A DNA stretch of 51,269 bases from assembly GCA_013153275.1 (NCBI GenBank), contig JAADER010000015.1, forward strand, positions 1-51,269, written 5' to 3'. The number at the start of each line of letters is the position of its first letter. Position 1 is the stretch's first letter. The notes under the pieces are model-generated. The model saw nothing but the letters and a program-made list of their open reading frames with translations. It did not search any database and had not been told where the DNA came from. Source of the stretch: Thermoproteota archaeon (GTDB taxonomy: Archaea > Thermoproteota > Thermoprotei > Thermoproteales > Thermocladiaceae). Both the position numbers and the translations under genes were made by a program. Shown piece after piece: positions 15,066 through 21,511 of this stretch.

Positions 15066-15815
15066 ATGTCCAGATGCTGTATAGTAATGCTTAGTGGAGG
15101 CCTAGATTCTAGCACGCTTCTGTGGAAGGCTAAGAAGGAGCTTGAAGCAGATATCTATGCAATAACGTTCATATACGGTCAGAAACATTCAAGAGAGGTA
15201 GAATGCGCAAGAAAGCTTGCAGAGCTTGCCGGAGTCATAGAGCATAGAGTAGTAGACATACGCTACATATCCTGGCTATTTCACGCTTCCAGACTAGTAG
15301 AGGGAGGTGTAACTATACAGGACCTGAGCAAGGTAAGTCTCGATTACGTACCTCAGAGAAATCTAGTGTTCCTGAGCCTCACAGCAGCATGGCTAGAGAC
15401 TCTCCTCCTAGAGAGGAAGTATAGAGAAGGAGTGATAGCCATAGCAGTACATAGATACGATCCAGAGACCGGGTACCCAGATACTCGTCCAGAGTTCCTT
15501 AAAGCAGTTGAAGAGGCAATAAACCTAGGAAGCGCAGCAGTTACAGAGGGAAGAGCCAGAGTAAGAATATGGGCACCATTTGCAGATAAGACAAAGATAG
15601 ACATAGTTAGAGAAGGTGTAAAGTTAGGAGTACCATATGAACATACATGGAGCTGCTACAGAGGACAGGAGAGACCCTGCGGAGAATGTCTATCCTGTAC
15701 TCTCAGGCTCAGAGCGTTCATGGAGGCTGGAAAACCTGACCCTCTGACAGACAAGTATGAGAAGCTACCTGAATGGTACAGAGAGTGGCTCAAGACTGTG
15801 ATCAGAGCTACCTGA
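15066..15815 (+). CDS. queC: 7-cyano-7-deazaguanine synthase QueC
   Basis: Converts 7-carboxy-7-deazaguanine to preQ0 with ATP and ammonia; in archaea preQ0 goes into archaeosine at tRNA position 15. The PP-loop is SGGLDSS (10-16). The C-terminal zinc site has C197, C205, C208 and C211 (SCYRGQERPCGECLSC). At 249 residues the length is normal. ACTTTTAATAG (about 15032-15042) lies about 28 nt before the ATG, fitting a leaderless mRNA. It converges on queE, with an 8-nt overlap of 3' ends. Confidence 0.95.
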   Translation: MSRCCIVMLSGGLDSSTLLWKAKKELEADIYAITFIYGQKHSREVECARKLAELAGVIEHRVVDIRYISWLFHASRLVEGGVTIQDLSKVSLDYVPQRNLVFLSLTAAWLETLLLERKYREGVIAIAVHRYDPETGYPDTRPEFLKAVEEAINLGSAAVTEGRARVRIWAPFADKTKIDIVREGVKLGVPYEHTWSCYRGQERPCGECLSCTLRLRAFMEAGKPDPLTDKYEKLPEWYREWLKTVIRAT

Positions 15816-16482
15816 TATCTAGAACATACTGAAGTCTGACGCTTATAGAGTAATTATACATTAACGCAAGCTTATACACTAGCCTCAGCTTCTCAACATG
15901 CTCTTCCATAGATCGACATTGAGGCATTAGAAACACCTTCCCCCTACTTATGTTAAGCTCTCTCACAATACTCTCAACTTCATATATATCATCTAAACGA
16001 TCTATAACAAATTTAAAAAATATCCTATCACTATAGTGCTCGAGAACCTTCCTATAAGTTGGAGATATTTTTCTCAACTCTGGAGGATTACCACTACTTG
16101 CAAGCTTCGGCGAGACAACGACGTAATCGAATAATTCTATAATATCTGATACATCTATGGTACCATTAGTCTCTAACTGAGTAACGAACATCTCTTTAAT
16201 GCTCTCTAGGAGAGAACGGAGGCCTCTCTTCTGGATCAGCGGCTCCCCACCTGTAACTACCAGCAGAGGCCTCTCCTGCATCATGCTCTCTCTATATTTG
16301 AGTATTATCTTCCTAACCTGATCTATAGTTAGCACATACCTCGGCTCATATGCGTACTTGGTGTCACACCATGTGCACCTCAGATTGCACCTTGCAAGCC
16401 TCAGAAATATGGCCCTTCTCCCAGCTAGTGGACCCTCTCCCTGGAAAGACGTAAATATTTCTGATACCTCTAACCTGCTCAT
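15808..16482 (-). CDS. queE: 7-carboxy-7-deazaguanine synthase QueE
   Basis: Radical SAM enzyme that contracts 6-carboxy-tetrahydropterin to 7-carboxy-7-deazaguanine, the step before QueC. Seen: the substrate-binding start EIFTSFQGEGPLAGRRA, the cluster motif C32-NLR-C36-TW-C39, and the SAM-binding VVTGGEPL. At 224 residues it is a normal archaeal length. It is last in a minus-strand pair with the HisA-like gene (4-nt overlap, ATGA) and convergent with queC. Confidence 0.94.
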   Translation of the reverse strand: MSRLEVSEIFTSFQGEGPLAGRRAIFLRLARCNLRCTWCDTKYAYEPRYVLTIDQVRKIILKYRESMMQERPLLVVTGGEPLIQKRGLRSLLESIKEMFVTQLETNGTIDVSDIIELFDYVVVSPKLASSGNPPELRKISPTYRKVLEHYSDRIFFKFVIDRLDDIYEVESIVRELNISRGKVFLMPQCRSMEEHVEKLRLVYKLALMYNYSISVRLQYVLDIR

Positions 16483-17168
16483 CTTACAGCTCCTCTATGT
16501 AGTGCAGATCCAACAATGACGGAATCTACCATCTCCGAGAGACTCTCTATATCCGACATGTCTCTTATGCCGCCTCCATAGAGCACCTCTCGTATCCCCA
16601 TCTCTCTCAGTCTCCGCGAGATCGTATGAACCTTCTTCAGATCTATTCCTGAGAATGTTCCGACCCTCTCTAAATCTATTATGAGAACTCTCTCTGGAGC
16701 TATGGAAAATCTATACATAATATATAGGAAGTCCTCATAATCTATCTCTCTATCTCTCAGCTTTACAAGTCTACCATACATATCCAAGCTGATAGTCTTT
16801 CCGGAGAGAACTTCGATCTCGTCACTTCTCACGTACTCTGTCCCTATTACAGGAATGATGTTTCTCTCTGTTGCAGTACTGTAATACTCTATTCCTCTTC
16901 TACCAACATCAATATACACTCTATCGAAGATTGATAGCATATTATTAAGAATCTTCAGTAGATCGTAGCTGGCTCTCTCCTCTATGAGGTCTATATCTGC
17001 TATATAGATCTCCCTATACCCTAGACTGTATATGGAGTAGAGGGCGCGCTCAATTACTGGACATGGTATTACTCTGCTATCCACAAGTGGTTCGTACTCC
17101 TCTCTTCTCCCGCTCACCGCACGTACTACGAGAAGATTCTTCAGATCTAGCACTGGCACTATCTTCAT
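16479..17168 (-). CDS. HisA-like TIM-barrel protein of C1-cofactor gene sets (COG1411-like)
   Basis: A 229-residue barrel related to ProFAR isomerase. It begins MKIVPVLDLKNLLVVRAVSG, where true HisA has a similar first strand, and has a phosphate-binding GGGIRDMSDIESL with SVIVGSALH near the C terminus. This diverged group is found beside methanofuran and tetrahydromethanopterin genes in methanogens and methylotrophs, and here it sits next to mfnF and mfnB homologues. No other his gene is nearby, so histidine synthesis is less likely. A GTG three codons in (17159) is an alternative leaderless start. Confidence 0.72.
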   Translation of the reverse strand: MKIVPVLDLKNLLVVRAVSGRREEYEPLVDSRVIPCPVIERALYSIYSLGYREIYIADIDLIEERASYDLLKILNNMLSIFDRVYIDVGRRGIEYYSTATERNIIPVIGTEYVRSDEIEVLSGKTISLDMYGRLVKLRDREIDYEDFLYIMYRFSIAPERVLIIDLERVGTFSGIDLKKVHTISRRLREMGIREVLYGGGIRDMSDIESLSEMVDSVIVGSALHRGAVR

Positions 17169-17182
17169 CGGTCATGTAATCC

Positions 17183-17190
17183 ATTTAAAC
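17183..17190. promoter_or_regulatory. TATA element between divergent HisA-like and mfnF genes
   Basis: ATTTAAAC contains the symmetric core TTTAAA (17184-17189). It lies about 32 nt before the GTG chosen for mfnF at 17218, and about 18 nt before the ATG or 27 nt before the internal GTG of the HisA-like gene. It may drive both directions. Confidence 0.45.
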
Positions 17191-17217
17191 ATGATTAAAG
17201 AATGTTATCTGTCTACC

Positions 17218-18270
17218 GTGCGCGTGCTCGGCATAGATGTGGGAGGAGCAAATTTGAAATATGTTGTCATAAGATATGATAACGGTAAACACGTCCTTGA
17301 GGAGGTTCATAGAGAGTATTTCCCTCTCTGGAGGAGAGGTAGAGAGGCTCTAGAGAGGAGGCTCAGAGAGCTCTCACGTGAGCTCAGTCCTGACTATGCG
17401 AGCATATGTATGACAGCTGAGCTCTGTGACATATATGAGTCTAAGACAGAGGGAGTGATCGATGTAGTTGAGAAATGTTGTGAAGCGTTTGGAAAAGATC
17501 GAACGCTCTTCGTGAGCTGTGACCTCGAGCTCCTCGAACCTGACGAAGCCTTGAAACATCCTCTCAAGATCGCTGCAGCGAACTGGGCGGCAAGTGCATG
17601 GCTAGTATCAAAACTGTGTAGAGACTGCGTGTTCGCAGATATAGGTAGCACAACTACGACAATAATACTCGTTCTAGATGGAAGACCTCAAATATGTGGA
17701 AAGACGGATCCTGAGAAGCTCATATGCGGGGAGCTTGTGTATCTAGGAACGTTAAGAACGTCAGTATCGGAGATTGTTGACAGGTTACCATATAAGGGAA
17801 ATATTTCTCGTATCTGTAGAGAATACTTCTCAATAATGGCAGACGTGAACCTCCTCCTAGGGAAGATAAGCTCAGAAGAATACTATATCGATACTCCAGA
17901 CGGAAGAGGAAAATCTCTGAAGGATGCCGCTCTCAGACTTGCGAGAGTAGCATGTTCGAGCCTGGAATATCTAAACATGAGCGAGATCGTAGAGATAGCA
18001 AGATACGTATACGATATCGCGATAGGAAAGATAACAGAATCATTCATTCAGGTAAGAACTAGAGCAGCAACATCTGGAAAGGACACAGCAAGACTAACTC
18101 TTGTAACTGCAGGTATTGGAGAGTTCATGCTAAGAGACGCTGGAATCAGAGCCGGATTTAGCAATATAGTGAGTATAGATGACATAGTTAGAGAGCCTCT
18201 CAAGATAGCGACAGCAGTACCCTCATATGGTGCCGCAATGATGCTGATAGACCACGTTAGGACGAGATAG
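17218..18270 (+). CDS. mfnF: MfnF-like ASKHA protein (methanofuran pathway, COG1548)
   Basis: A 350-residue protein of the hydantoinase/oxoprolinase-like ATPase group. MfnF in methanogens joins the aminomethylfuran phosphate unit to glutamyl-tyramine. Visible motifs are the N-terminal nucleotide-binding strand VLGIDVGGANLKYVVI, CMTAELCD, FADIGSTTTTIILV, and the C-terminal SIDDIVREPLKIATAVPSYG. The GTG at 17218 makes MRVLGIDVGG, the family's usual start, and stands at promoter distance; the ATG at 17191 is only a few bases from the TATA. Its 3' end overlaps convergent mfnB by 48 nt, an unusually long overlap. Confidence 0.82.
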   Translation: MRVLGIDVGGANLKYVVIRYDNGKHVLEEVHREYFPLWRRGREALERRLRELSRELSPDYASICMTAELCDIYESKTEGVIDVVEKCCEAFGKDRTLFVSCDLELLEPDEALKHPLKIAAANWAASAWLVSKLCRDCVFADIGSTTTTIILVLDGRPQICGKTDPEKLICGELVYLGTLRTSVSEIVDRLPYKGNISRICREYFSIMADVNLLLGKISSEEYYIDTPDGRGKSLKDAALRLARVACSSLEYLNMSEIVEIARYVYDIAIGKITESFIQVRTRAATSGKDTARLTLVTAGIGEFMLRDAGIRAGFSNIVSIDDIVREPLKIATAVPSYGAAMMLIDHVRTR

Positions 18271-18963
18271 GTCTTTAAATATCCTTATGACCTCTAGTAG
18301 GCGGGCCTCGCTCATTATATGCGATCTTTTGTCACAAAGAGCTGATCTTAGCCCAACTATGTCTGGCCTTACCTCTCTTATAATATCCGATAGCTCACTT
18401 ATCTTCAATCCACCAGCCAGCGAGAACATGATTCCCTGTTGCTTACATGCATCTCTTATCTTCATTATATTGTCTATACCATATTTCTCAACTATCGATC
18501 TTCCATCTTTTATCTTTGTATCAATCATAAATATCTTAATATCAAGCATTCTACATATGTCAAGCAGCTTAAGCGGGTCAATATATCCAAGATTATTATA
18601 ATCTCCAAACCCAGTCACCACTAAGCATGAGCTTGTTATCCTGTGCTTGAGCTCTCTTAGAAACCATATTATCTGTTCTCTATCGTTCATACATATTCCG
18701 ACCTTTATGAAGTCGATATCTAGCTTGTCGATGAGCTCGGCAAGTGTGAGTATTGAGGTATATGGTTTCTCTACGTCTCCGAGAGGGATGCTCAAGCTTG
18801 TGAACTTGTTATGTAGAGCCTCTTCAATGAGGTTGTACTCTGGACATCCTAGAGATTCTGTTGATTTCACGTTTTTTAGATCTAGTATGTCTATGTGCTG
18901 CCTATACTTGTATACTATTGGAAGCTCCTCTACGTAGCCTACTGATACTAATAGTCGAGTCAC
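18223..18963 (-). CDS. mfnB: MfnB-like (5-formylfuran-3-yl)methyl phosphate synthase
   Basis: Makes the furan ring precursor of methanofuran from two glyceraldehyde-3-phosphates. The 246-residue barrel (COG1891) shows DILDLKNVKSTESLG near the N terminus, aligned with the DVKNP-EGSLGA of MfnB including the active-site Lys, then DFIKVGI, VVTGFGDYNNLGYIDP, and FMIDTKIKDGRS with the second catalytic Lys in DTxIKDG. The end VRPDIVGLRSALC matches the phosphate site. The start lies about 25 nt after ACTTAAATAG (about 18983-18992). Presence in a non-methanogen-looking genome is the point of interest. Confidence 0.85.
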   Translation of the reverse strand: MTRLLVSVGYVEELPIVYKYRQHIDILDLKNVKSTESLGCPEYNLIEEALHNKFTSLSIPLGDVEKPYTSILTLAELIDKLDIDFIKVGICMNDREQIIWFLRELKHRITSSCLVVTGFGDYNNLGYIDPLKLLDICRMLDIKIFMIDTKIKDGRSIVEKYGIDNIMKIRDACKQQGIMFSLAGGLKISELSDIIREVRPDIVGLRSALCDKRSHIMSEARLLEVIRIFKDLSRPNVVYQHHCGTI

Positions 18964-20446: not shown

Positions 20447-21511
20447 ATGCTCCGCGGACAGGAAGGAAGCAACAAGTTCCTAGATAGAGACCTCTTCGAA
20501 ACAGATGAAGGCTACATATTCTGCGTAGTTGCAGAGCATCACCCACCAGATAGAGTGACATCGTACCTAAAATACATGCCGACAAGAAGACAGACATTAT
20601 GGAGAAAACACAGTACTGGACTGGAGAGAATAATGAAGACGTATGGAGCATCACAGTACGAGAAGTCTAGAGAGATCGTGAGAGAAATATGTAAGAAATA
20701 TGTAGTATATGATAGATATCTCAACATTGAGCTCATACAGGTCCCTATAGAAGATGTGAGGATTCATTATAGACCTGAAGAGAGAGTAAGAGAGATAATG
20801 AGAGAACCTGGAGACAGCCTAGAAGAGCTCGCTAAAGAGCTAATAGAGACTTTATCTGACTACTCGGAGATACCGATAGACTACCTTGGAATAACAGGAT
20901 CATTGCTGGCAAAAATACATAACATAGAGAGATCAGATATAGATCTCCTAGTATACTCTAAGAGAAACACATTACGAGCTCTAGATACCCTGAGAGAGCT
21001 AGCGGAGAAAAACATAACAATATTTGATAAGAAAATGATAGAAATATGCGTGAACGATGTTTCGAAATATATTAAGGGTCTTGATCGAGAAAAACTTGCA
21101 AAAATAGTTAAGAGAAGAATGCCTCGAATGATGTTTAGAGGGAGAATATTTTCAATAAATTTTGTGAGAACTTTTCAAGAGAGGTATGAGAGATATGGAG
21201 AGCATTACTACAGGAAGATCTGTCCCGTCAGGATAAGGGCCAGAGTTGTAGACTCATCAGAATCTTACTATAACCCTGCCATATATACCATAGATGATGT
21301 TAGACCTATAGAGCCGCTGGATGTACCGAGGATATGTGAGGTAGCTTCATATGAAAACATATTTTCAGGAATAGCTAGAGATAACGAAGAGATAGTAGTT
21401 TACGGAATGTTAGAGAAGAAAGTTCATATAAGCTCTGGAAGAGAGAGCTACAGAGTAGTTATAGGATCGGTAGAGTTGAAAGGATACGACTACATTCTTC
21501 CTCTAGAATAA
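20447..21511 (+). CDS. Predicted nucleotidyltransferase-like protein (COG1665-like)
   Basis: A 354-residue protein of an uncharacterised archaeal family. The middle has a polymerase-beta-type nucleotidyltransferase signature: GITGSLLAKIHNIERSDIDL, with the G-S pair followed by the two Asp of SDIDL, and a third strand around ICVNDVSKYI. The N-terminal 130 residues are basic (PTRRQTLWRKHSTGLERIM) and could bind nucleic acid. The C-terminal part is beta-rich (EEIVVYGMLEKKVHISS). The substrate is unknown. TTATCAC near 20421-20427 may be its TATA. Confidence 0.65.
   Translation: MLRGQEGSNKFLDRDLFETDEGYIFCVVAEHHPPDRVTSYLKYMPTRRQTLWRKHSTGLERIMKTYGASQYEKSREIVREICKKYVVYDRYLNIELIQVPIEDVRIHYRPEERVREIMREPGDSLEELAKELIETLSDYSEIPIDYLGITGSLLAKIHNIERSDIDLLVYSKRNTLRALDTLRELAEKNITIFDKKMIEICVNDVSKYIKGLDREKLAKIVKRRMPRMMFRGRIFSINFVRTFQERYERYGEHYYRKICPVRIRARVVDSSESYYNPAIYTIDDVRPIEPLDVPRICEVASYENIFSGIARDNEEIVVYGMLEKKVHISSGRESYRVVIGSVELKGYDYILPLE

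What the first reader, a model, noticed from the sequence alone, without database searches (positions are those of the whole stretch)
16479..18963. Methanofuran-type cofactor genes (HisA-like, mfnF, mfnB) in a crenarchaeal-looking chromosome
Three adjacent genes match the sets found in methanogens and methylotrophs: a HisA-like barrel, an MfnF-like ASKHA protein, and MfnB with both active-site Lys segments (DLKNVK..ESLG and DTKIKDG). None of the methanogenesis genes is in the window. The organism may make methanofuran or a new furan cofactor for formyl transfer, or the genes may have been kept for another use. The arrangement (divergent, then a 48-nt convergent overlap) ties the three together.
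Basis: partly seen in the sequence, partly recalled or inferred. Interest (0 to 1): 0.72.

Follow-up and report, generated by a model that had tools for sequence, protein, structure and literature searches.

The report
Methanofuran genes in a non-methanogenic Thermoproteales
A heat-loving archaeon that lacks the methane-making enzyme carries genes for methanofuran, a carrier of one-carbon groups best known from methanogens, and the rest of its genome holds the matching enzymes for turning CO2 or CO into acetyl-CoA, so the genes are working parts of a known pathway, although one expected enzyme (MfnE) seems to have been lost.

Summary
Window 16479-18963 encodes a HisA-like barrel, an MfnF-family protein (TIGR03123, 301 bits, cut-off 244) and MfnB (PF04476, 115 bits, cut-off 22) with its active-site lysines aligned, overlapping by 48 nt as stated. 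The same genome (1.39 Mb, 88.6% complete, order Thermoproteales) carries FwdA, a fused FwdD-B, FwdC, Ftr, Mch, Mtd, Mer, CdhC/D/E and CooS, and no McrA. Across 61 relatives, MfnF, MfnB and Ftr occur in exactly the same eight genomes. The HisA-like gene is related to Orf17, which is essential for methylofuran synthesis in Methylorubrum (PMC8141765) but of unknown step; it sits near mfnF in 56 of 80 related archaeal loci. Best explanation: a methanofuran-type cofactor serving the methyl branch of an Mcr-free archaeal Wood-Ljungdahl pathway. The twist is MfnE. It lies between mfnF and mfnB in relatives but is missing there in all five genomes of this genus, and no MfnE was found elsewhere in them. 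Another kinase, perhaps isopentenyl phosphate kinase, may do its step (inference). Known families and a known pathway in a little-described lineage.

The parts
16479..17168 (-). HisA-like TIM barrel, homologue of Methylorubrum Orf17 / M. jannaschii MJ0703 (TIGR00734-like); putative early step of methanofuran synthesis
   Evidence: PF00977 E 3e-16, TIGR00734 94.6 bits (below its cut-off of 179.85); adjacent to mfnF in the genus and near it in 56 of 80 MfnF loci; Orf17 is essential for methylofuran (PMC8141765)
17191..18270 (+). MfnF-family protein (Hydantoinase_A / ASKHA fold); start at 17191 (ATG) or 17218 (GTG)
   Evidence: TIGR03123 301 bits over cut-off 244; 3c0b E 5e-55; tree places it in a Thermoprotei MfnF clade, 100/100
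18223..18963 (-). MfnB, 4-HFC-P ((5-formylfuran-3-yl)methyl phosphate) synthase
   Evidence: PF04476 114.8 bits over cut-off 22.4; 4rc1 (MJ1099) E 3e-14; active-site Asp/Lys segments conserved
18223..18270 (.). 48-nt tail-to-tail overlap of mfnF and mfnB; the place where mfnE lies in relatives, missing throughout this genus
   Evidence: Overlaps of 24, 24, 32 and 36 nt in four congeners; gene order HisA-F-E-B in relatives; no MfnE by NF040622 in five of five congeners
20447..21511 (+). Nucleotidyltransferase-like protein (PF01909-like) whose close homologues sit beside mfn or ftr/fwd genes in G048, G026 and G020; possible associated gene of unknown role
   Evidence: matches over 200 bits only in genomes that carry mfn genes; weaker paralogues elsewhere

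Best explanation
The three genes are part of a working pathway that makes a methanofuran-type cofactor. MfnB condenses two glyceraldehyde-3-phosphates to the furan 4-HFC-P; an aminotransferase makes the aminomethylfuran phosphate F1-P; a kinase makes F1-PP; MfnF joins it to a glutamyl-tyramine (or tyrosine) unit; the HisA-like protein does an early step that is still unknown, as Orf17 does in methylotrophs. The finished cofactor accepts the formyl group from formylmethanofuran dehydrogenase (FwdA, fused FwdD-B, FwdC) and hands it through Ftr to tetrahydromethanopterin; Mch, Mtd, Mer, CdhCDE and CooS then link it to acetyl-CoA. The organism is a Thermoproteales archaeon with no Mcr found, so the use is a Wood-Ljungdahl (reductive acetyl-CoA or reverse) pathway, not methanogenesis. 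Shown here: the presence, clustering and co-occurrence of the genes. Inferred: the activities, the direction of flux, the exact furan structure, and which kinase replaces the MfnE that was not found.
For: Family identities. MfnF, MfnB and Ftr occur in the identical 8 of 61 genomes, in four genera, including all five congeners. FwdC over cut-off in G000, G002, G020, G026 and G048. In G000: FwdA 700 bits, FwdB 441 bits with [4Fe-4S] motif CPFCGLLC and VCHGP kept, Mtd 362 bits, Mer 365 bits, Ftr 375 bits, CdhC 567 bits, CdhD/E, CooS 642 bits; Mch and an MptN-like ligase next to ftr and fwdC; RFAP synthase. No McrA in any of 61 relatives. CdhC in all five congeners and G026 only. HisA-like, MfnD, MfnF, MfnE and MfnB recur together in 80 loci from Thermoprotei, Bathyarchaeia and Asgard archaea. 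Orf17 deletion abolishes methylofuran but not H4MPT in M. extorquens (PMC8141765). dN/dS about 0.17 (MfnB) and 0.08 (MfnF) between G001 and G002. The same gene order in congener contigs excludes a binning error.
Against: MfnE was not found in the whole genus, and MfnD was not found in G000, G001 and G002; no decarboxylase (MfnA) motif was found (weak test); MfnC is only a guess. MfnB is fast-evolving (56% identity where neighbours have about 90%). No cofactor has been measured.
Confidence: 0.87

Rival explanations
1. Decaying remnant: the genes are left over from an ancestral H4MPT/methanofuran branch and no full cofactor is made now.
For: MfnE not found in five of five congeners, MfnD not found in three; MfnB evolves fast; remnants of methanofuran genes are described in other archaea (PMC9635834).
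Against: All steps that use methanofuran (Fwd, Ftr) and the whole pathway down to CdhCDE are present; FwdB metal-binding motifs are intact; active-site residues kept and purifying selection; no internal stops in the three congeners checked.
Confidence: 0.07
2. Altered cofactor: the genus makes a furan carrier whose ring is activated or linked differently, without MfnE, so the product differs from known methanofurans.
For: MfnE missing precisely from the mfnF-mfnB junction while MfnF is kept; MfnB and HisA-like diverge more than neighbours.
Against: MfnB active-site residues are unchanged and MfnF is well conserved; a promiscuous kinase is a simpler answer. Archaeal IPKs phosphorylate a thiophene-bearing alkyl monophosphate (PMC8500459) and G000 has an IPK.
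Confidence: 0.12
3. The HisA-like gene belongs to H4MPT, not methanofuran, synthesis and is a neighbour only by clustering of both pathways.
For: MJ0703 was once proposed for H4MPT synthesis (cited in PMC8141765); a HisA-type isomerase would suit a ribosyl intermediate (own reasoning).
Against: The M. extorquens orf17 mutant still makes methenyl-dH4MPT but no methylofuran; the gene lies with mfnF and mfnD in most loci.
Confidence: 0.1

Closest known systems
Methanofuran biosynthesis of methanogens (MfnA-F, Methanocaldococcus jannaschii)
   Same: MfnB and MfnF families with conserved active-site segments; methanofuran-using Fwd and Ftr present
   Different: MfnE not found in the genus; MfnD not found in this genome; sequences below the equivalog cut-offs; no Mcr
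Methylofuran cluster of methylotrophic bacteria (Orf22 = MfnB, Orf9 = MfnF, Orf21 = MfnE, Orf17 = HisA-like)
   Same: The HisA-like gene next to mfnF and mfnB; MptN/MyfB-like ligase next to ftr
   Different: Here a true dehydrogenase with metal-binding motifs rather than the Fhc hydrolase; no mfnE; archaeal Mtd and Mer
Mcr-free archaeal Wood-Ljungdahl pathway of Bathyarchaeia and deep Korarchaeia
   Same: fwd, ftr, mch, mtd, mer and cdh genes without Mcr
   Different: Found in order Thermoproteales; monofunctional CooS beside mtd-fwdDB with separate cdhCDE; fwd genes scattered over contigs
Thermoprotei mfn cluster (Guaymas MAGs B15_G16 and B12_G16, Ignisphaera, Desulfurococcaceae, Vulcanisaeta sp. 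JCM 14467)
   Same: MfnF clade 100/100; order HisA-like, mfnF, mfnB, with the same orientations where hisA is adjacent
   Different: Most of them carry mfnE between mfnF and mfnB; the window's genus does not

Membership tests
MfnB (4-HFC-P synthase) | Match to PF04476 over the curated cut-off | tested here: met
   114.8 bits, cut-off 22.4
MfnB (4-HFC-P synthase) | Active-site Asp/Lys segments, including Lys155 | tested here: met
   DLKNVK and DTKIKDG align with MJ1099 (Lys155 role from PMC11365854)
MfnB (4-HFC-P synthase) | NCBIfam equivalog cut-off | tested here: not met
   NF002575 100.9 bits of 304; congener G003 148.7
MfnB (4-HFC-P synthase) | Makes 4-HFC-P from glyceraldehyde-3-phosphate | not testable with these tools
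   Needs an enzyme assay
MfnF | TIGR03123 over cut-off | tested here: met
   301 bits of 244.1
MfnF | NF040623 equivalog cut-off | tested here: not met
   249.5 bits of 520; the six Thermoprotei sequences aligned share over 100 invariant positions
Orf17 / TIGR00734 HisA-like | Family match | tested here: inconclusive
   94.6 bits, cut-off 179.85; best match among HisA/HisF models, and synteny with mfnF agrees
Canonical methanofuran pathway | MfnE kinase | tested here: not met
   No match in five congeners; the amino-acid-kinase proteins found in G000 are PyrH, AspK, LysZ and IPK
Canonical methanofuran pathway | MfnD ligase | tested here: inconclusive
   Divergent MfnD in G003, fragment in G004, none found in G000-G002
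Canonical methanofuran pathway | MfnA and MfnC | tested here: inconclusive
   Motif scan for MfnA empty (weak); one aminotransferase next to fwdC is a candidate MfnC
Archaeal Wood-Ljungdahl pathway | Fwd, Ftr, Mch, Mtd, Mer, CdhC/D/E, CODH | tested here: met
Methanogenesis | McrA | tested here: not met
   PF02249 absent in 61 of 61 genomes; controls ring

The most novel reading that the evidence does not exclude
The genus lost mfnE yet still makes a methanofuran-type cofactor, so either another kinase (most simply the isopentenyl phosphate kinase) makes F1-PP, or its MfnF and HisA-like proteins run a modified route to a different furan carrier.
Probability: 0.45. Interest if true: 0.62.

Novelty: new member of a known kind. 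Interest (0 to 1): 0.48.

Why it matters
It adds a Thermoproteales genus to the Mcr-free archaea that carry the methanofuran/H4MPT Wood-Ljungdahl pathway, and the Thermoprotei-wide mfn cluster suggests retention from an ancestor rather than recent transfer. The recurrent coupling of the HisA-like gene with mfnF supports a furan-side role for the still unassigned Orf17/MJ0703 family and offers thermostable homologues for testing it. The missing MfnE makes a concrete biochemical question: which enzyme makes F1-PP here?

Tried and rejected
Methanogenesis was rejected: no McrA in 61 genomes. Contamination or mis-binning was rejected: congener contigs carry the same genes in the same order. A hidden MfnE was sought with NF040622 in five genomes and with a Thermoprotei MfnE profile in G000: only PyrH, AspK, LysZ and a PUA protein, plus a weak match that proved to be an IPK next to a prenyl diphosphate synthase. 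A motif search for MfnA gave nothing and is weak. The 20447-21511 protein was modelled (pLDDT 88) but gave no PDB match at E <= 0.001, only partial OB-fold and nucleotidyltransferase similarities, so no function is claimed. TIGR00734 as a distribution test was of little use because it cross-matches HisA, HisF and other barrels. Literature searches for this pathway in Thermoproteales, Vulcanisaeta or Ignisphaera found no report in the open library; subscription papers, such as Adam et al. 2019, could not be read.

Full report
Observation. The three ORFs are real and at the stated coordinates, with a 48-nt tail-to-tail overlap of mfnF and mfnB. The MfnF-like protein passes TIGR03123 (301 bits, cut-off 244) and matches the solved MfnF-family protein 3c0b at E 5e-55. 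MfnB passes PF04476 and matches MJ1099 (4rc1) at E 3e-14, with the active-site Asp/Lys segments aligned. The HisA-like protein passes PF00977, and its best NCBIfam model is TIGR00734, below that model's cut-off. All three miss the strictest NCBIfam cut-offs, so they are divergent members.

Organism. The window is a whole contig (C38) of a 1.386 Mb assembly, 88.6% complete with 0.27% contamination. The closest named relatives are Thermoproteales or Thermoproteota MAGs (JAADDN, JAADCU, JALWFJ, JAMOMD), and Vulcanisaeta sp. JCM 14467 falls in the same family: its contig of 85,575 bases matches that of G020. Congener G001 carries the same gene order with neighbours about 90% identical, so the genes belong to this chromosome.

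Pathway context. MfnF, MfnB and Ftr occur in exactly the same 8 of 61 relatives: all five genomes of the genus and one genome each of three other genera. In the window's own genome, C53 carries an MptN/MyfB-like ligase directly upstream of ftr, then a dihydropteroate-synthase-like gene, mch, fwdC and an aminotransferase. C56 carries mtd and a fused fwdD-fwdB with an inserted two-cluster ferredoxin segment, beside a CooS-type CODH. C35 carries fwdA. C55 carries mer, over the family cut-off. C69 carries cdhC, cdhD and cdhE. C47 carries an RFAP synthase, and a second CooS with a ferredoxin and a hydrogenase-like subunit. FwdB keeps the CxxCxxxC cluster motif and the VCHGP segment (their role in tungsten and cluster binding is from general knowledge). 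McrA is absent in all 61 genomes while the methanogen controls ring. This is a complete Mcr-free archaeal Wood-Ljungdahl gene set. Such sets are known in Bathyarchaeia, Korarchaeia and Asgard archaea (PMC10667645); the open library held no report for Thermoproteales.

The HisA-like gene. In Methylorubrum extorquens the HisA/HisF-family protein Orf17, homologous to MJ0703, is essential for methylofuran synthesis, and its deletion leaves dH4MPT intact; its reaction is unknown (PMC8141765). In 80 archaeal MfnF loci the HisA-like gene lies within the fetched flank in 56, MfnD in 63, MfnE in 68 and MfnB in 58; many of these contigs are short, so these are lower bounds. That the three window genes belong together is therefore well supported, independently of their overlap.

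The missing MfnE. Typical Thermoprotei loci read HisA-like (left), mfnF and mfnE (right), mfnB (left). In all five genomes of this genus mfnF meets mfnB directly, overlapping by 48, 24, 24, 32 and 36 nt. The NF040622 profile finds no MfnE in any of the five. If incompleteness alone were to blame and were independent between genomes, the chance of missing it five times would be about 1 in 10,000 (from the completeness values). In G000 the amino-acid-kinase proteins that a Thermoprotei MfnE profile retrieved are PyrH, AspK, LysZ and an IPK. The MfnF tree shows the genus as one clade (100/100) inside a Thermoprotei clade (100/100), consistent with one loss in the genus ancestor. IPK does the same chemistry on other substrates, and archaeal IPKs accept a thiophene-bearing alkyl monophosphate (PMC8500459), so I infer that it is the simplest substitute; this is untested. 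MfnD is divergent in G003, a fragment in G004 and not found in G000-G002; many tyrosine-type methylofuran producers also lack MfnD (PMC8141765).

Selection. Between G001 and G002, dN/dS is about 0.17 for MfnB, 0.08 for MfnF and 0.12 for the 20447-21511 gene. These genes evolve faster than their neighbours but under purifying selection, which argues against decay.

Verdict. The use is identified: formyl carrier of a Wood-Ljungdahl methyl branch. What stays open is the furan structure, the MfnE substitute, the tyrosine-side genes and the direction of the pathway. The families and the pathway are known, so I file it as a new member of a known kind, with the MfnE-less cluster as the part worth following.

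Noticed in passing
window 20447-21511; L013:12184-13335, L056:17166-18290, L014:4996-6084: Nucleotidyltransferase-like protein family whose close homologues (over 200 bits) occur only in the relatives that carry mfn genes and sit beside mfn or ftr/fwd genes; function unknown, model shows partial OB-fold and nucleotidyltransferase similarity.
   Followed up: partly
L051:9458-10456 (G000:C11); second Ftr in all five congeners: A second, divergent Ftr paralogue (about 32% identical to a canonical Ftr), genus-wide, away from the fwd genes; possibly another formyl acceptor.
   Followed up: no
L161:4677-6593 (G000:C56): FwdD and FwdB fused in one 638-residue protein with an inserted two-[4Fe-4S] ferredoxin segment, next to mtd and facing a cooS gene.
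   Followed up: partly
L112:4819-8773 (G000:C47): Second CooS with a CooF-like ferredoxin and a NuoD/hydrogenase-like large subunit: looks like a CO-oxidising, energy-converting hydrogenase operon.
   Followed up: partly
L014 and L058 (Vulcanisaeta sp. JCM 14467, G020): Many genes of its fwd/mfn region, and neighbours such as SHMT, are split by stops or frameshifts, which suggests sequencing errors in that draft rather than pseudogenes.
   Followed up: no
L256:621-1322 (G019:C122): A Vulcanisaeta-like MAG without detected mfnF, mfnB or ftr still has the HisA-like gene: a remnant, or missing contigs.
   Followed up: no
L015:16475-17254 (G004:C62): An FmdE-domain protein (PF02663) lies next to mfnB in one congener.
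   Followed up: no
window 15808-17168: The HisA-like gene overlaps queE by 4 nt on the same strand; queE is as divergent between congeners (64%) as the HisA-like gene, while queC is 90% identical.
   Followed up: no
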